This document shows, piece after piece, positions 1,560-44,582 of a stretch of DNA of 64,000 bases (positions are counted from its first letter, which is position 1; every line of letters starts with the position of its first letter). The DNA is taken from the NCBI GenBank assembly GCA_001692895.1, contig KV748179.1, positions 3,609,222 through 3,673,221 of the forward strand, in the 5' to 3' direction. The notes under the pieces are model-generated. The model was not told where the DNA came from, ran no database searches, and was given only the letters and a program-made list of their open reading frames with translations. The position numbers and the translations under genes are program-made. The DNA is from Cenococcum geophilum 1.58. Its lineage: Eukaryota; Ascomycota; Dothideomycetes; Gloniales; Gloniaceae.

Positions 1560-4500
1560 TCTCTTGCCTATCAGTTAAATGACTCTACTAAGGTCGAGTT
1601 TGTCTACCACGATTATCCTCAATAAGCCAGAAGACTGGGAGTAATGGATCTGGCAACTATAAGCCCTTATAGACAAACGAATTTGGGCCCACGTTAACCT
1701 AGACAAGGAAGCACCTTAACGAGGTCTACTATAAGAACTAGCCTATCCAGAAGTTACAGATTTTAATGAGAATGCAACCTTATATATATAGCTCTCGACG
1801 AATTAATAGAGGGCGTACAAGAATAGCAGACGATACTATAATTAGGATATGAAGTATTTCCTAAAATAAGAAGAGCACCTTTAATAGATCTGCACCCAAA
1901 TTACGTCTATAGTATTAATTTAGAAGAAGCTACTGCTTAACCCTTCCTTAATAGTTAAAGAATGGCTATCTTAACTAAAGGAGAACACAGAACCTACCTT
2001 GTCGTTTATTAGGAAGAAGGTATAACACTAGTATACGGAAGCCCTTAAGGGGTTTAAATACTTGTTAAAATTAAATTAGTGGTTAGATTAATGGGAATAT
2101 ATAATAGTACTAGGAGAGAAGTATAAGATCCCTTAAATATCCAATAGAATCTAGCTTTAAGAATTAATAGAAGTTATTTAACCTTTTAGCGACACCTATT
2201 ATATAAAGTATACTACTAAGTTAAATAACCCTTAGAAGTTGAGATCTTCTAAATACTATAGAGTAGCAAAGGAGCCATAAGAAGGACTTATAATACCCTT
2301 AAAGAAAGCTAATACTACTATAAAAGGGAGTACCTTTAATATAGACTTTATAGAGTAAGCCACGATAGATTACTCTAATACTACTAAAGGTTTAGGGAAA
2401 GGAACCTTAGTATATACTAGACGCTTAAAGAGAGCTAGGTTACTAATAGACGAGGAGACGTCCCGCAAGAAGCTACTACCTATATGCTTAGCGTACGAGA
2501 AACAAGGATATTCCCTTTAAAACTATTAGTATTTATTTAAAGACAAGAAACCCAAAGGAGTTATAATTAGAGATACTTGCATTAAAAGGGTGCTAAAGAA
2601 GATAGAAAAGAATAAGAATCTCGCTAACTAAGTTATAAAGATTAGACTTAAAGAACAGGAAGATAAGGCTTAACAACGATAGGACAAGAGTTAGGAAGTT
2701 AAGATTAAGGGAGAAGCTAATGCGATATTCCTAGAATTATATTATACAGGTTAAATCTATTTACTAAAGCTATTAACTATTCTTAACTTAGGAACCACTC
2801 TCTATATCTTTAATAACCTCTCTCGTTTCTATAACTTTAGGAAAGCTTTAAGACTTAAATACGTCATCGCCGGCAGCTTAAAAGTGCCTATACTAGGCTA
2901 TAGTAACGTCACTATCTAAGTTACAAAACTAGACAAGAGTAAGGGAATCCTATATCTTAAGGACGTTGCCTTTTATAAGGACTTTAATACGAATCTAGTG
3001 TTATTCTATCTACTTTAAAAATAAGGGTACTACTAAAACAATAAAGGAGAGAATAATCTTCTAGTTTAAAAGGATAACTTAGTCCTATATTAAATGGAAG
3101 AACGTTATAGATAATAGACTATCAAATACGTCCAACTAGAAAGTCTATTAGCGTTTAATATAAGCTAACTGCTACGCTAACGGAAGCGCAGAGTATTATT
3201 AAGAGACGCTCGTCTAGATTTAAAAGGAGATGCATATTTATAGTATCTACGTCTAGGTTATCCAGGACCTATAAGCCTTTATTATTTAGGTCTTAACGCC
3301 CTAGGAGTTAAGCTTTAAGGCCCAAAGATAACGGAATATTAATATTGCAGTCTCGCTAAAATTAAGCGTTAGGTTTTAAGAAGGTTCTTAAAACAAAATA
3401 TTAATAAACCTTATCTTAACCTCTATATTAACTGGACTAACCTTAAGAAAGCATATACTGGATTTGTACGAGTTATATTTATCTATAACACCTTCTTAAA
3501 AAGAACCTTCCTGTATTTTATAACAACGCATAGCAAAGAGAAGGAGATACTATAAATGCTTAAAGATTTCACCTAATAGATTCGTCTAAGGTATAACCTT
3601 AAGATTAACACTATTAGATTAGACAACGAGCTAGAGAAAAGAAGAACCCTTAAATAGCTACGGACTTAAGGAATTATATTTAAGCCTTTAGCGCTATATA
3701 CCTAAGCTTAAAATAGTACCGCCAAACGCTTAAGGGGTATAATTATTAAGAGATTATAAGTAATAAGAATTACTACTAATTTACCACACGACCTATAAAA
3801 CGAGATAGTTAACTATATAGTATACCTTTAAGATTAAACGCCACTAAAAAGCAATAGTTAAAAATCGCTATATAGGAAGTTCTATACCTTCCTAGCCAAT
3901 AGGTTAAGAAAGCCGCAACTAGCGCACCTAAAAGCCTACAGCTATAGGGCGTATACAATAACGTCAGACGCCTAGCTAAAGAAGAAAAGGCTAAGCAAGC
4001 TAGATCCGCGAGCCCATATCGGCTACCTTATTGGCTATAACTCTACCAATATCTATAGAATCTGGATCCTATATAAAGGTATTATTATCTCTACTAGGGA
4101 CGTCATCTTTAACGAGAAGACGTTTTTTAACGGCAAGTAAACGGATATCTTAAAGGACCTATACGCCGAATTAGATATACTAATTAAGAAGATTTAACTA
4201 CCTAATACCTAGACTAAGAATGAGGTCCTTCTAGAAGATAATAAAGAAGTATTTAAACCGTTAATTTAAGAGGAAGACGACGACGTCGATAAGCCAGTTT
4301 AAGCCTTTAATAAGTTAGCAGATCTTAAGCTTATAAGAGCTCTTAAAGACGTATATCGTACGCCATCTCCAACGAAAGAAGACGAAGAATCTCTATATAC
4401 CTTTTACGTTAAGTATCCTACAAAGTTAGATGTACAAGGTACTAATTAAGACGTTACTTATTAAGTAGGAGATGCGTTTAACACTTAGGGGGTGTCCAAC

Positions 4501-23338: not shown

Positions 23339-23446
23339 AACTTCAACCAGCGGTTAAAGTTGTCTAATTAGTTAGATTTGTCTTACTAAGACTCCCCCGC
23401 ATTTAACCAAGCCAGTAGCGATTTTATATACCCGGCATAGAAAATC
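23339..23446. repeat. Two hairpin modules in Gypsy-C 3' region
   Basis: Two imperfect palindromes near the 3' end of Gypsy-C. The first, 23339-23361, has arms aacttcaacc / ggttaaagtt with a 3-base centre. The second, 23420-23446, has arms gattttatat / atagaaaatc with a 7-base centre. Each is followed by ctaattagt. Related copies of both occur at 44446-44468 and 44556-44582 in Gypsy-B, and of the second at 43450-43476 in the tyrosine-recombinase element. Confidence 0.8.
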
Positions 23447-38500: not shown

Positions 38501-39420
38501 TAAGACACTTTATTTCTGTTACTAGCCTAAATACTAAGGAGCTTATTAAAGCATTTATTTACACTATCTATAAGTTACACGGCGCTTTAGATACTATTAT
38601 TTCTAATAAAGGCTCTTTATTCATTTCTAACTTCTAATATTGCCTAAACTAGCGCCTAAAGGTAACCCTAAGCCCTAGCTCCGTATAGCACCCTAAAATA
38701 GATAGTTAAACTAAGATTATTAACGCAGTAATAAATAAGTACCTACGCGCCTTTATAAGCTTCACCTAAGATAACTAGGTAGATTAGCTTTCCCTTACTA
38801 AGTTTGCTATAAATAACTAGGTTAATAAAACTATGGGAATCTTACCGTTCTTTGCTAACTATAACTATAACCTATATCTAGGTATTAAACCAGTAGGCCC
38901 TTAGCTATTAGCCCTATCTATATATATAAAAAAGGAGTACCTATAAGCTAATACTATCGCTAACTACTTTAAGCGCATTCTAACCTAGCTTAAAGCCCTA
39001 GCTTATATCTCCTAGCGACGCTATAAAGATAACGCTAATATAAAATAAGATGAGGGTATAATATTTAAAAAGGATAATATAGTTATAGTTAGCCTTAAAA
39101 ATATAAAGACTAACCAGCCTAAAAGGAAGTAGGATAATAACTAGGACGGACCCTAGCCCATCCTAGCTGCCTATAAAGGAGTAGTCATAATTAACCTCTT
39201 AGACTATATCTATGTTAATAAGTCTTTATATACTTTAAAAGTTTGCCTTTAGTTCCCTAAAGAGATCTCTGGTTAAGTATATATTAATAAAAAGGAACGT
39301 TATAATATTATAGGCAGGATAGCTAAAAGGGATAACGACGGCAATATTACGGACAAGTAGGAATTTAAAAAGATCCTTAATATACACAATAAATAAATAG
39401 ACGAGCACGGCTTAATATAT
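35542..39420 (+). pseudogene. Gypsy-B pol relic: RT, RNase H, integrase, chromodomain start
   Basis: RT spans about 36480-37080, with the catalytic box at 37003-37020 (YLNNILIF for YLDDILIF). RNase H follows with IVEIDALNQALGRVLY (about 37438-37485) and YNKELLVIIKAL. The integrase N-terminal zinc region has GRIGHLGRVKTLNLL (about 38216-38258). The clean frame 37951-38154 lies just before it (EYLIINGLIYYRN). The integrase core has a degraded D-x-G / N-K-G-S-L-F box near 38600 and the PFFANYNYNLYL segment near 38849. The chromodomain begins at about 39360 (EFKKILNIHNK) and is cut at cttaatatat (39420) by the next element. Confidence 0.88.
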
Positions 39421-39532
39421 ACTAGCGTCTATATATTGCTTAGCAGCATCCACGTTAGCAACGCACAATGCTAAGACCTCCTGCAATATTCGCGAATATT
39501 AAACGCAGTCACTACGTGGCTAATTCGCTTCC
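39421..39532 (+). repeat. Split direct repeat A1
   Basis: Begins actagcgtctatatattgc and ends ctaattcgcttcc. It pairs with A2 (43826-43938, actagtgtctatatattgc). Both contain the short palindrome atattcgcgaatat. Differences are mostly transitions. Confidence 0.9.
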
Positions 39533-39699
39533 AATATCGCTAAACTTATTAATATTCATCGTATATTTATCATCCATTTGTTTAAGAATTATTTTATAAC
39601 GCTATTACCGCTTATAACCAACTAGGAGATTCGTACGCGTGTATAATCTAAATAAGTAAACCTACTTAGACGACCTACCTCAACTACACCATTGTCTAC

Positions 39700-40660
39700 A
39701 ACCGCTACACCCTCCTCTATTAGTCCTATAATGCCGCCTAAGGCTAATATACGCGCCGCTGCCGTAAAAAAGCGCAAAATTGCTAAAGAGTAAAGGGAAT
39801 AAGCCTAAGATAAAAGGGAGATTTAGAAGTATAAGGAAGAGCGTAAAGCCCGCCTAGTGGAGGAGGCTTACTAGTATAAATACCACCTAGCTTAAATAGC
39901 TTAATTATAGTTAGGCCTGGCCGCTTTAGCCTTATAGGCTACTACAACAGCTATTATAGCTAATGTCCTTAGTAAGCCTCTCCCTCCTAGTATAAAGTCG
40001 CTTAAACTCCGCCTTCTTAGCATTATAAAAAGGGATTACCTAAATATTTTTAAGGGTACCTTCGATCTAGTAAACCTCGCCTGTCTTTAAGTCTATACCA
40101 CTTAAATTAAAATCACCGATAAGATATAGATTAAAAATAGTACTTTAGTTATAAAGAAGGCAAAGGTAAATAGGAAGCTATTTATAGATAAAGGCGTTTA
40201 GTTTAAAGGTTTTACTAACTATATAGTTATTACTGGCACCCTCTATATATGCCCGCTGGACCTTATTACTAGTATACTTCTCTAAATAAATATAATTTAT
40301 ACCTTATTAACCCAGTATATCTAGGTAGGTTGTATACTCGATTTAGCACTTAACTATTATACCTTTATAATAACTAATGGCTAACTAGAGCCCGCTAATT
40401 AGTAAATGCCAGCTTAGTATACAGCGCCATACTTTACAATATCTAGTACTATTAGCTTTGCCGCCTTAAAGAGACCCAGGTTAGATACCTCCTATACCTC
40501 TAATACCTGCCGCAAGTTTAATAGTAGAGGCTGTAACAATATAGCTTATAAATACCCGTATAAGTGCTTAAAGTGTAGTAAAGATTACACTATATTATCT
40601 AAAGCTTGCGCCTAGGAATAGCAAGGCAAACCTTACGAAGTAGGATCTAGCCTAACAATA
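39700..40660 (+). pseudogene. Gag-like ORF relic of the YR element
   Basis: A forward frame from about 39742 starts MPPKANIRAAAVKKRKIAK (when ATG is taken at about 39730) and continues through a charged helical region (YKEERKARLVEEAYQYKYH). The end is Cys-rich at 40508-40615: CRKFNSRGCNNIAYKYPYKC, then LKCSKDY. This resembles the C-x-R-F-N-x-G-x-C / C-x-Y-x-H-x-C-x2-C zinc pattern in gag-like proteins of fungal DIRS/Ngaro elements. The His reads Tyr here. Stops replace Gln and Trp. Confidence 0.7.
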
Positions 40661-40899
40661 ATATTAACTTTAATTACACGCCTAGGACCTAGGCCTAATA
40701 CGTTACTATTATTCCCTACCTTTATAGAGGCGAAGGCTCTCTACTACTCTCTATTACCCCTAAGGATCTTAGCGTAGTACTCCCTTCTATTTAACTACCT
40801 AGGCAATCTATTAGCCATCTTAGTAGGCATCTTAACCTATAGCTGCGAAATAGGAGCCAAATCTATCCCTACCCTAAGATCTTATAGAAACCATAACTC

Positions 40900-42260
40900 C
40901 TCTTAAGATAACCCCAACCTTATCTCTAAGAAGATAATATTAGACCTTAAAAAAGGACATATTAGAATCGCGATAGGGCCTATTATAGTCTTACCTTTTA
41001 GCCTAATACTAAAATTAAATAGAGGATACCGCCAAATTTACAATCTCTTCTTTTTACTAGTATCTTTAGTTAATAACGCAATCCTAGAAGAATATGGAGT
41101 ACTAGTATACACTATAGTTACCACTATTTAAGCCCACGTTATTTCTACAGGTTGTAGATATCTACTACTTAAAAGAGATATTAAAGACGCGTTTTATATA
41201 GTCCCCCTATCTTATAGGGCAAGAACATTAATAGGCTTCTCCTAGGAAGGTATTACCTACTAGGAATACTAACTATCCTTTAATCTTTAAACTACGCCGC
41301 TTATATTTAACCTCTTCGCGGAAGGCCTATACTGGATACTCTATTTATAACTACTTTACGAGGTAGAACACTACCTAGATAACTTTATCTTTATTCTTAC
41401 TAACCCAAATAACTTAGCGGCTATTACCTAGACTTATATCTCTATTACTAACTCCCTAGGTATCCTTTAAAATAGCTCTAAAGATATAGCAGGAACTGTT
41501 ATTAAAGTTCTAGGATATACTATTAATATTATATAAATGCAGACGCGATTATTACTACAGAAACAATTATGTACTATTAAGAAAGTCACTACCACACTCT
41601 AATACGGCTTATTATTGTTCCTTTAAGCCTAGCAGCTTACGGGCTACCTTATATAGTGCGCCTACATAATTAGACTTAGTTAATCTTACTCTAGATCCCT
41701 TTAAATCTTTATTACTGCTTAGCTAGAGACTTTAGCAAATAAGTATAAACCTAGGCGATTTAGTACTAAGTTACGAAGTAACTTATATATCTAGCTTAAC
41801 CTACTTACTATAAGTAATGGGGTATTATTTTTTAACAACGTTAAGCGTGCCCGCATTTATCTCTTTACTAACGCCTCTACCTAGTTTAGGTTTAGCGGCT
41901 TTTACTTTTTTAAGGAACTTAAATATAAGAATAACTGGTAGTAGTATACAGCCAACCTCCCTTAATCTTAGGCGTTTAGTATATTACCTAAGCCCAGTTA
42001 ATAAGTAGACCATATTAATCCGAAAGAGATGTATGCTATTGCTTATGTATTTAATCTATAGTCTACTAACTAGTAGTATAGCGCGCTATCCATTTATACT
42101 AATAGTATAGTGGTTTACTAGGGCATTAAGAAGATTATTATCTATAGTATAGCAAACAAATCACTCTATAAGATTATGCTAGCTACTATAGCTTATAATA
42201 TCACAATATCCGCGAAGTGGATCCTAGGTGATTTAAATGGCTTAGCTAATATACTATCTT
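40900..42260 (+). pseudogene. RT and RNase H relic of the YR element
   Basis: RT of DIRS type: RDIKDAFYIVPL (41173-41208, first catalytic Asp kept in IKDAF), a G-F-S segment (about 41225), LIFNLFAEGLYWIL (about 41300-41345, matching the DIRS-type F-x-x-N-L-F-A-E-x-x-x-W segment), and the catalytic box HYLDNFIFIL (41369-41398), where DD is now DN. RNase H follows from about 41840 with ARIYLFTNAST (Asp to Asn) and KWILGDLNGLANILS at about 42219-42260 (kept Asp). This RT is clearly unlike the Gypsy RTs around it. Confidence 0.85.
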
Positions 42261-42279
42261 AATTCCAGGCCGCGGCTAT

Positions 42280-43375
42280 TTATTAGTTCTGCCCACACTA
42301 GGCCCTTAATTTATTACTACTAAAGCTAATAAGTTTTTAATAGGTGCCGTAAACCCGATAGACTACTTATAACCGCCTATAAACTTTAAAGATAATATTA
42401 ACGCGCTATCTAACCTCTACGCGCTCCTTTTCTAAAACGGCCTTACGCTAGTAACCTATAGGAACTATTCCTTAGTAGTTAATAGCTAGGAGTTATACTA
42501 CGCACTTAAAGGAGTCTTCCTCTACCCGGCTAAGCCGCGTAAACTAGGTAAATAGATTGCCCGCTACGTGTTTAGTACCTCCTAGCTACAGATAGGTAGG
42601 CTTAAGGCCGAAACCTTATAAGCCTATATTTCCGCAATCCGCTCGCGCTATATAGATTACGGCATCTTAATTACAGTATTTAAGGATCCTATAGTACACC
42701 GATTACTCGCCAGAGTAGCCGCTATTTCTCCCTTAGTAAAAAAGGACAAGCAACCTATTACTAGGGATATTTTAGCCTAGGTAATAATACACGGCCCATT
42801 GCTACCAGATGTTAACACTAATGCTATATTTACCCTCGCATTTGCTAGATTTCTACAGATAGGCGAGATTACGTATACTATGGCGGAGCTTAAGAACCGA
42901 ACAACCTTTTTAGTAAAAAAGGCCACCCGATACAATATTACCTTTATACCTAGTAGGATAATATTCTACCTTAAATAGAGTAAAGCCGATAAGTAACACT
43001 AGGGCGTTAACGTCGCCATCGCGGTAGTAGGCGGCCTATTATACCTAGTCGCTGCTATAATAAAGCTGTTTAATAGGGACCCTTAACCCCTTAACTCTCC
43101 TTTATTTAGTCTTAATAGTAAACCCTTTGCCTCTCTAGGGGTTTATAAGATCCTTTCCTCCTATCTAATAGCTGCTAGGATTAACCTAAGCAGCCACCTA
43201 AACTACCCCTCCCGCTAGGGCGCTGCCTAGTTCGCTAAAGATTTAGGGTATTTATATTAGCAAATTCAGCAGCTAAGTTAGTAGTTATTAGAAGCCTTTC
43301 GCCTATATATTAAGACTAAAACCACTAACCTCTATCGCCTTAACTCTTACTTCTAGCGTAGTGTACCGCTCTTAG
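42280..43375 (+). pseudogene. Tyrosine recombinase relic
   Basis: The DNA-cutting enzyme that replaces integrase in DIRS-like elements. The first catalytic region reads FARFLQIGEIT at 42841-42873. The family has F-L-R-x-G-E, so the key Arg is Gln (cag at 42856-42858, one G-to-A change from cgg). The second box reads YPSR, stop, GAA at 43204-43224, where the family has H-x-x-R-x-G-A-A: His is now Tyr (tac from cac) and the Arg at 43213 is kept. The nucleophile region AFRLYI is at 43294-43311, with Tyr at 43306-43308. At least two catalytic residues are lost, both by RIP-type changes. Confidence 0.85.
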
Positions 43376-43449
43376 CGTAAGGATTACTAGGTAGTAGGTT
43401 AAGATATTAAAAGGGCCGCTAAGGCGCTAGTAGTAAGCAAGCTAATAGC

Positions 43450-43476
43450 GATTTTCTATACCGGGCATAGAAAATC
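43450..43476. repeat. 27-bp hairpin in the YR element
   Basis: Perfect 10-bp arms gattttctat / atagaaaatc around the 7-base centre accgggc. It matches, in inverted orientation, the hairpin at 44556-44582 in Gypsy-B, with flanking similarity (ctaatagcg before, ctaattagttgg after). A third copy is at 23420-23446. Confidence 0.88.
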
Positions 43477-43502
43477 CTAATTAGTTGGCTTATAACTTAG
43501 GG

Positions 43503-43645
43503 TTGGCAGAATATGGCAGAATACGACAATATAGCAGAATTTAGTAGAATGCGACAATGTGGCAGAATTTAGTAGAATGCGATAAGGTGGTAGAATTTAG
43601 TAGAATACGACAATATAGCAGAATATAGCAGAATGCGGTAATGTC
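43503..43645. repeat. 28-bp tandem repeat downstream of the recombinase
   Basis: Four to five units of the form agaatgcgacaatgtggcag then aatttagt. A related fragment (gcagaatttag) lies at about 51165 next to an LTR remnant. Confidence 0.75.
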
Positions 43646-43652
43646 TTGTTAG

Positions 43653-43825
43653 GTATAGAAGCTTTGCTTAGGAATATCTGGCTGCTTTAGGGCAAATCCT
43701 TAGCAGATTTAAGTGCTAGGAACTAGCAAAACTGTTAAGAACTAGCCCTAGAGCGACCTTATAGCCCTATACCTCCCAATTATATAAAAATTAAATATCC
43801 CCTTACATAACTGCGATAGATAAAT
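43653..43825 (+). repeat. Split direct repeat B1
   Basis: Shares ctttagggcaaatccttag, gtgctaggaactagcaaaac and aattaaatatccccttac with B2 (44076-44247). It ends gcgatagataaat directly against A2. A shorter, degenerate version of its middle occurs at about 43980-44050. Confidence 0.88.
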
Positions 43826-43938
43826 ACTAGTGTCTATATATTGCTTAGCAGTATCTACCTTAGCAATATATAATGCTAAGACCTCCTATAATATTCGCGA
43901 ATATTAAACACAGTTACTACATAGCTAATTCGCTTTCC
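43826..43938 (+). repeat. Split direct repeat A2
   Basis: Begins actagtgtctatatattgc immediately after B1 and ends ctaattcgctttcc. Collinear with A1 at 39421-39532. Confidence 0.9.
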
Positions 43939-44075
43939 CTACCCGCCATCCCTTATACTTAGTATGCATTATATATAGATAGCGCTTTAAGGTAATTCTT
44001 TAGCAGGTGCTAGGAACTAGCAAACCTACTAAGAACCAGCCTTAGTGCGACTACTATAGTTAGATAGTCTTACAG

Positions 44076-44247
44076 CTATAGGCTTGCGGTTAGGGACATC
44101 TAGCCGCTTTAGGGCAAATCCTTAGCAGATTTAAGTGCTAGGAACTAGCAAAACTGCTAAGAACTAGCCCTAGAGCGAACTTATAGCCCTACGCCTCCTA
44201 ATTATATAAAAATTAAATATCCCCTTACGTGACTGCGATAGATAGAT
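44076..44247 (+). repeat. Split direct repeat B2 and right end of YR element
   Basis: Collinear with B1. It ends gcgatagatagat at 44247, and the next base begins the Gypsy-B chromodomain sequence tgtattaaatgg. Confidence 0.88.
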
Positions 44248-44345
44248 TGTATTAAATGGAAGTATTATAATAAGGAAACCTAGGAACCTAAGAAATCCCT
44301 AAAAGGGTATAAGCGCGTATTACTAAAGTTTTATAAATAATACCC
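44248..44345 (+). pseudogene. Gypsy-B chromodomain, second part
   Basis: Reads CIKWKYYNKET, stop, EPKKSLKGYKRVLLKFYK. This is the strand-and-helix part of a chromodomain (family: Y-L-V-K-W-x-x-Y-x-x-x-x-x-T-W-E-P). The stop is TAG for the Trp TGG of T-W-E-P. It joins in frame to the part ending at 39420. Confidence 0.85.
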
Positions 44346-44445: not shown

Positions 44446-44582
44446 AACTTTAACCGCCGGTTAAAGTTATCTAATTAGTTAGTTTTTTACCAAAAAGTGT
44501 TATATAGTGGCAGTGTAGAGTTCTACTAACTTTATTTATTAAACTAACCAATTAGGATTTTCTATGCCCGGTATAGAAAATC
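44446..44582. repeat. Two hairpin modules before the Gypsy-B 3' LTR
   Basis: 44446-44468 is a perfect palindrome (aactttaacc / ggttaaagtt, centre gcc). 44556-44582 has perfect arms gattttctat / atagaaaatc, centre gcccggt. Between them, ctaattagttagttt and aaactaaccaattag form a further inverted pair. Similar modules sit near the 3' end of Gypsy-C. Confidence 0.85.

What the first reader, a model, noticed from the sequence alone, without database searches (positions are those of the whole stretch)
39421..44247. Tyrosine-recombinase retrotransposon with split direct repeats, excised in silico to the exact base
Seen: A1 (39421-39532) equals A2 (43826-43938), and B1 (about 43653-43825) equals B2 (about 44076-44247), in the order A1-ORFs-B1-A2-B2. 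The protein relics are gag-like, DIRS-type RT (LIFNLFAEGLYWIL, HYLDNFIF), RNase H and tyrosine recombinase (FLQIGEIT, Y-P-S-R-x-G-A-A, AFRLYI). Known: this repeat layout and enzyme set define Ngaro/PAT-type YR retrotransposons, which lack integrase and target duplications. Inference: it is a full-length ascomycete member. Its removal joins cttaatatat to tgtattaaatgg and restores the Gypsy-B chromodomain frame.
Basis: partly seen in the sequence, partly recalled or inferred. Interest (0 to 1): 0.85.

Follow-up and report, generated by a model that had tools for sequence, protein, structure and literature searches.

The report
Defunct fungal tyrosine-recombinase retrotransposon family
This stretch is a dead copy of a jumping element that probably spread through a fungal genome by copying its RNA into DNA and inserting it with a phage-like recombinase, and its many sister copies let us read exactly where such elements insert.

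Summary
Confirmed: 39421-44247 is a full-length, mutated copy of a split-direct-repeat tyrosine-recombinase (YR) retrotransposon of Ngaro type, inside the chromodomain of a Gypsy element. Twelve other full-length copies in the same 177-Mb genome share its ends. Of 29 other Gypsy-B sites read, 28 are empty to the base, one differs by one base. Copies differ almost only by RIP-type changes (transitions:transversions 94:1). The RT does not group with the host Gypsy RT. An undamaged database relative of the YR models as a Cre fold. No methyltransferase, the mark of PAT/DIRS, is found or has room. A second YR family shares the layout.

A complete ascomycete Ngaro family is already reported (Zymoseptoria tritici), so this is a new member of a known kind. 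The one-phase crossover, perhaps single-strand exchange, is the surprising point. The host's being an ascomycete is inferred.

The parts
39421..44247 (+). whole YR retrotransposon, 4827 nt, RIP-type mutated, defunct
   Evidence: same ends in 12 other full-length copies of 4809-4895 nt (8 of 20 fetched copies are truncated or interrupted); empty sites in Gypsy-B
39421..39532 (+). A1 repeat (112 nt), left end ACTAGCG
   Evidence: 45 left ends
39731..40820 (+). gag-like ORF relic with a Cys-rich zinc-finger-like motif near 40508
   Evidence: read-through frame; motif in 13 of 13 copies by a loose regular expression that allows for RIP; no Pfam match above noise
40820..42337 (+). reverse transcriptase and RNase H relic, motif YLDD decayed to YLDN
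   Evidence: aligns to all 506 residues of P0001; RVT_1 4.3e-5, below cut-off, for the relic and 1.2e-13 for P0001
42338..43353 (+). tyrosine recombinase relic (aligned core 42592-43353; amino end inferred); Arg I, His and Trp lost
   Evidence: 76% to P0029; P0029 model pLDDT 93.1, Cre-like
43504..43654 (+). minisatellite of about 10-nt units before B1; inferred source of most length differences
   Evidence: D1; the palindrome before it lies at element position 4028-4030 in 13 of 13 copies and junction to right end is 418-424 nt where measured
43668..43825 (+). B1 repeat
43813..43844 (+). B1|A2 junction: imperfect 12-nt arms around an 8-nt spacer, proposed recombinase site
   Evidence: 9-11 of 12 arm positions paired in 13 copies; 41 of 2000 Markov-1 random sequences reach 10 or more anywhere in 60 nt
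43826..43937 (+). A2 repeat
43983..44051 (+). degenerate B-like stretch between A2 and B2
   Evidence: D3
44090..44247 (+). B2 repeat, right end GATAGAT
39412..39420 (+). left half of the target inside the Gypsy-B chromodomain
44248..44260 (+). right half of the target inside the Gypsy-B chromodomain

Best explanation
The segment is a full-length, inactivated YR retrotransposon with Ngaro-type structure. Inferred life cycle (published Ngaro/PAT model, partly recalled, plus this anatomy): the RNA runs from A1 to B2; reverse transcription uses the internal B1-A2 stretch to join the ends into a circle whose B|A junction is a lox-like site; the element's recombinase then exchanges this junction with chromosomal TATA^TA, adding exactly one element length. 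Shown here: the anatomy, exact ends, absence of duplication or deletion, target motif, a crossover between bases -3 and -1, the modelled recombinase fold of a near relative, RIP-type decay, and solo and repeat-less derivative forms. Inferred: the circle, the reverse-transcription route, the cleavage chemistry, and the host being an ascomycete.
Against: Pfam Phage_integrase reaches P0029 only at E 0.018, below the cut-off, and the window's own YR has no Pfam hit. RNase H is weak by Pfam (P0001 0.0091, below cut-off). No labelled Ngaro reference set was available; in the YR tree the one named basidiomycete (Pleurotus djamor) falls in the other half of the midpoint-rooted tree. One left end (L131) reads C instead of T at -1, an exception to the crossover rule. 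No circle or transcript was observed. Host taxonomy not tested.
Confidence: 0.92

Rival explanations
1. It is a PAT-lineage element that lost its methyltransferase, so it only looks like Ngaro.
For: Such a case was described in Caenorhabditis briggsae (PMC4157794, passages); split direct repeats and a zinc-finger-like gag fit PAT too.
Against: Weak: the YR profile reaches Pleurotus djamor among 120 listed hits, and Ngaro expansions are reported in Pleurotus ostreatus (PMC3783388); but that protein falls in the other half of the YR tree, and no PAT reference was compared. This is no clade test.
Confidence: 0.05
2. The segment is a normal internal part of the Gypsy-B element or an LTR-type insertion.
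For: It lies inside a Gypsy open frame.
Against: 0 of 29 other Gypsy-B copies read hold it; no LTRs, no target duplication, no integrase match in the element; RT far from the Gypsy-B RT.
Confidence: 0.01
3. The solo A2-B2 and A-ORF-B forms arose by ordinary homologous recombination between A1/A2 or B1/B2, not by the recombinase or by circle resolution.
For: The products are the same; solo AB repeats in Cafeteria Ngaros were put down to recombination of the repeats (PMC8547959, passages).
Against: Not separable by sequence here: the ends are canonical in L126, L127, L129 and L130, as both routes predict.
Confidence: 0.5
4. The constant crossover phase reflects ordinary double-strand exchange with biased mismatch repair or a very short overlap, not single-strand exchange.
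For: Characterised YRs usually exchange both strands (recalled); repair bias could hide heteroduplex. L131 may be a second phase.
Against: 32 of 32 copies informative at -3 and 3 of 3 informative at -1 show one phase, which would need near-perfect bias.
Confidence: 0.7

Closest known systems
Ngaro family in Zymoseptoria tritici (PMC4502367, passages seen)
   Same: complete YR retrotransposon of Ngaro type reported in an ascomycete
   Different: sequence not available here for comparison; the passage gives no end, target or crossover data
Basidiomycete Ngaro groups 1-4 (PMC3783388; abstract, introduction, Results, Discussion and part of Methods read)
   Same: A-pol-B-A-B repeats, RT, RNase H, YR, no methyltransferase
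   Different: that survey found one truncated, repeat-less element in Ascomycota; here are two multi-copy families with intact ends
Cafeteria burkhardae Ngaro (PMC8547959, passages seen)
   Same: A1-[ORFs]-B1A2B2 layout and isolated AB repeats
   Different: unrelated host; a TATA^TA target and A-ORF-B forms are not in the passages seen
Cre/loxP
   Different: arms imperfect; target shares only a few bases with the junction; function untested (loxP layout recalled)
PAT and DIRS1-like elements (PMC4157794, passages seen)
   Same: YR and RT-RNase H; PAT also has split direct repeats
   Different: they carry a methyltransferase; DIRS1 has inverted repeats

Membership tests
[quoted passage not shown]
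Ngaro | reverse transcriptase and RNase H | tested here: met
   RT clear; RNase H weak by Pfam (P0001: RVT_1 1.2e-13; RNase_H 0.0091, below cut-off); relic aligned over the whole of P0001
Ngaro | tyrosine recombinase | tested here: met
   relative P0029: Cre fold and catalytic residues; the window copy has lost three of six of them
Ngaro | no methyltransferase | tested here: met
   no Pfam match in the read-through pieces and only 254 nt between the aligned RNase H and YR relics, about the size of the YR amino end of P0038; RIP damage weakens the Pfam part
Ngaro | no DDE integrase, no target site duplication | tested here: met
Ngaro | RT/RH/YR fall in the Ngaro clade with named references | not testable with these tools
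   no labelled reference set; four organism names among 120 listed YR hits
Ngaro | zinc finger in gag (variable feature) | tested here: inconclusive
   motif by loose regular expression in 13 of 13 copies, no Pfam match
PAT | methyltransferase domain | tested here: not met
   with the caveat above
DIRS1-like | inverted terminal repeats and internal complementary region | tested here: not met
   one search lists three inverted pairs, none at the element's ends
VIPER | kinetoplastid host and VIPER clade | not tested
   -
LTR/Gypsy | LTRs, DDE integrase, target duplication | tested here: not met
Crypton | YR without reverse transcriptase | tested here: not met

The most novel reading that the evidence does not exclude
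Integration swaps only one strand: the recombinase joins one strand of the element's circle junction to the target at TATA^TA and the host's replication resolves it, much as integron cassettes are thought to insert (recalled). This would explain why all 35 copies with both ends fit a crossover in the same 2-nt interval and phase, and why the target matches the junction on both sides of that point (TA.A before, TA after) but not at the far side of the spacer.
Probability: 0.2. Interest if true: 0.68.

Novelty: new member of a known kind. Interest (0 to 1): 0.42.

Why it matters
YR retrotransposons are thought to insert through a circle, but the insertion step is poorly known. Here a burst of nearly identical copies, frozen by C-to-T mutation, sits among many empty sites, so target choice and the exchange point can be read directly. 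It would also add two multi-copy families to a group that a 2013 survey found almost absent from Ascomycota, if the host is one.

Tried and rejected
Led nowhere: scan of viral contigs with P0001 (one pattern match, none confirmed); PDB sequence search with the YR (one weak match, E 0.28); NCBIfam and Rfam, nothing relevant; structure prediction from 6 YRs (pLDDT 37.7), replaced by one from 62 YRs; search for a published primer to name the host, nothing usable. L128 looked solo by pattern but has B1 upstream and was dropped.

Considered and rejected: internal Gypsy segment; PAT (no methyltransferase); Crypton (RT present); left ends of the opposite phase. On contigs C1-C35, the only part compared, six places are missing: L132 has a C-to-T change in the spacer, L133 and L134 a G-to-A change, L135 is a family-2 member, L067 has one changed base, and L131 keeps the spacer but has C at -1. 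None has the spacer replaced by target sequence.

Weak points: the junction palindrome alone is not strongly significant (41 of 2000). The left ends were picked by similarity to A1 or B1-A2-B2, which favours whole spacers; one search hits start at query base 1 (39) or 2 (1). Of 45 left ends, 10 gave no usable right end (9 not found in the 301 nt fetched, 1 with a short flank). Only 2 of the 35 copies are informative at both -3 and -1 (L076, L105). DNA searches score 40 places, so copy numbers are lower bounds. One LTR row only in the RT tree. RIP-mutated rows have skewed composition in both trees. Of 120 YR hits listed, 19 shorter than 250 aa, among them the Podosphaera one, were left out of the tree.

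Changed on checking: the claim that the 2013 survey found no PAT in fungi was dropped, as it is not in what I read; the odds of the novel case were lowered slightly because of L131 and the two doubly informative copies.
Full report
OBSERVATION. The window holds two interleaved direct-repeat pairs, A1/A2 and B1/B2, in the order A1-ORFs-B1-A2-B2. In the genome that contains the window (177.2 Mb, 162 contigs) 40 places were scored for the B1-A2-B2 unit out of 254 candidates; all 40, the window included, match at 91% or more. Of 20 copies fetched, 12 are full length with clean ends and 4809-4895 nt long; the other 8 are truncated or interrupted.

EMPTY SITES. The left flank was searched in the same genome (40 places scored of 542 candidates) and 30 loci were read, one of them the window. 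Of the 29 others, 28 run from left flank to right flank with 0 nt between, and 1 with -1 nt. The insertion therefore added 4827 nt with no duplication and no loss. Four empty copies were tested for the chromodomain: 4 of 4 match PF00385, 1 above the curated cut-off; the frame of one of them runs through the site apart from in-frame stops.

TREES. The window's RT groups with P0001 and P0006 (100/100), far from the Gypsy-B RT of the same window (branch length 10 in the model; one LTR row only). The window's YR groups with P0029 (SH-aLRT 99) and then Aulographum hederae (97); Pleurotus djamor falls in the other half of the midpoint-rooted tree.

DECAY. Over 78 pairs of 13 full-length copies there are 33382 transitions and 355 transversions in 376198 sites. 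C/T differences lie mostly at CpA (15794) and CpG (9466), although CpT and CpC are commoner in the sequence. This is the signature of repeat-induced point mutation (RIP). Transversions alone affect 0.09% of sites, so the copies were probably alike when RIP began: a narrow burst (inference). Of 309 candidates for the YR, 149 were scored and gave 150 matched rows; each lists at least two stops.

TWO FAMILIES. By my count of those 150 rows, 106 are 62-82% identical to P0029 and 44 are 40-51%. Three of the latter were read. L123 and L124 have the same A1-ORFs-B1-A2-B2 layout, and their right ends leave the element just after GATAG(A). L125 has A1-ORFs-B1 and no A2-B2.

DERIVATIVE FORMS OF FAMILY 1. 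Pattern searches found 180 A starts and 180 B ends genome-wide, reversed-pattern control 0. On contigs C1-C35, where both lists are complete, 37 of 97 A starts are exact B|A junctions. Of three fetched candidates for solo elements, two (L126, L127) are A2-spacer-B2 units of about 422 nt with normal ends and no B1 in the 90 nt upstream; one (L128) is not solo. Both fetched candidates for repeat-less elements (L129, L130) go from B straight into DNA without similarity to the element. Solo AB repeats are known from Cafeteria Ngaros (PMC8547959, passages). Homologous recombination and YR action predict the same products.

WHERE IT INSERTS. In 45 left ends the five bases before the element are TATAT 30, TAAAT 5, AATAT 4, TAGAT 3, others 3; TATAT starts at 0.86% of window positions. 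The element's ACTAGCG is kept in 44 of 45, GCTAGCG in one. Of the 45, 35 gave both ends. In these, base -3 is T 28, A 4, G 3 on the left but G, the junction's base, on the right in 35 of 35; base -1 is T on the left in 35 of 35 and T 32, A 3 on the right. So before the exchange point the left end carries target bases and after it element bases, and the right end is the mirror image: the point lies between -3 and -1 (32 copies informative at -3, 3 at -1, 2 at both). The three copies with A at the right predict a target base other than T. Patterns for their empty sites, up to 3 mismatches, matched 580, 19 and 1467 times (control 0 each). The base is A in the rows listed for the first (100 of 580 listed) and in all 19 of the second, and G or A, never T, in the 100 of 1467 rows listed for the third. 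L127 agrees (C on the right, T on the left). L131 disagrees (C on the left, T on the right in L136). The right arm without the spacer gave 182 places against 180 with it. On contigs C1-C35 six places differ, and none has a replaced spacer.

MECHANISM. The junction GCGATAGATAGA-TACTAGCG-TCTATATATTGC (10 of 12 arm positions in 10 of 13 copies, 9 or 11 in the rest) resembles a lox site; random sequences reach 10 or more in 41 of 2000. A double-strand exchange with the usual 6-8 nt stagger (recalled) should leave heteroduplex and both phases among progeny; the 35 paired copies show one. After the exchange point the target matches the junction at the first two bases (T 32 of 35, A 24 of 35) and not the third (C 1 of 35). 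Either repair is strongly biased, or the overlap is minimal, or only one strand is exchanged. I give the last one chance in five.

KNOWN OR NEW. The survey PMC3783388 (abstract, introduction, Results, Discussion and part of Methods read) found one truncated Ngaro in Ascomycota. PMC4502367 (passages) reports a complete Ngaro family in Zymoseptoria tritici. Repeat tables list Ngaro in Sporothrix and Hortaea (PMC9281073, PMC7601665, passages). Structural definitions come from PMC4157794 and PMC6681497 (passages). Among the papers listed by searches I saw none on this family, nor, by title and the passages read, one that maps a Ngaro crossover; the library is open access only and most listed papers were not opened. 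Its size fits Cenococcum geophilum (177.57 Mb, RIP-like mutation 'Probably', PMC5445492, passages; 178 Mb, PMC5023957, passages, whose main text has neither 'DIRS' nor 'Ngaro'). This is an inference.

VERDICT. Observation and interpretation stand. It is a new member of a known kind, with unusually clean insertion data.

Noticed in passing
window 43450-43476, 44556-44582, 23420-23446: A 27-nt near-palindrome (GATTTTCTATRCCGGGCATAGAAAATC) lies after the YR frame in 13 of 13 full-length copies, and in 13 of 15 Gypsy-B loci checked; in the window it is part of a 72-nt inverted match between the two elements; 161 exact places genome-wide, control 0. A short element or hairpin shared by unrelated retroelements.
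   Followed up: partly
window 43504-43654; L123 5473-5711: Both YR families carry a minisatellite of about 10-nt units just before B1; the family-2 unit (AATTCTGCTA) is the reverse complement of a family-1 unit (TAGCAGAATT).
   Followed up: no
window 43983-44051: A third, degenerate B-like stretch between A2 and B2, as if the spacer had once been another B copy.
   Followed up: no
P0003 and P0029 (database proteins): RT P0003 and YR P0029 share source and longest-contig length (5090), as do P0004/P0038 (4553) and P0012/P0056 (8875), suggesting RT and YR on one contig; but P0003 is only 46% to the window RT while P0029 is 76% to its YR, which would be a mosaic, a nested pair or coincidence.
   Followed up: no
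L126 (G000:C27:851060-851640): The flank of this solo A2-B2 element looks richer in G+C and less RIP-mutated than most flanks read, by eye only; short solos may escape RIP.
   Followed up: no
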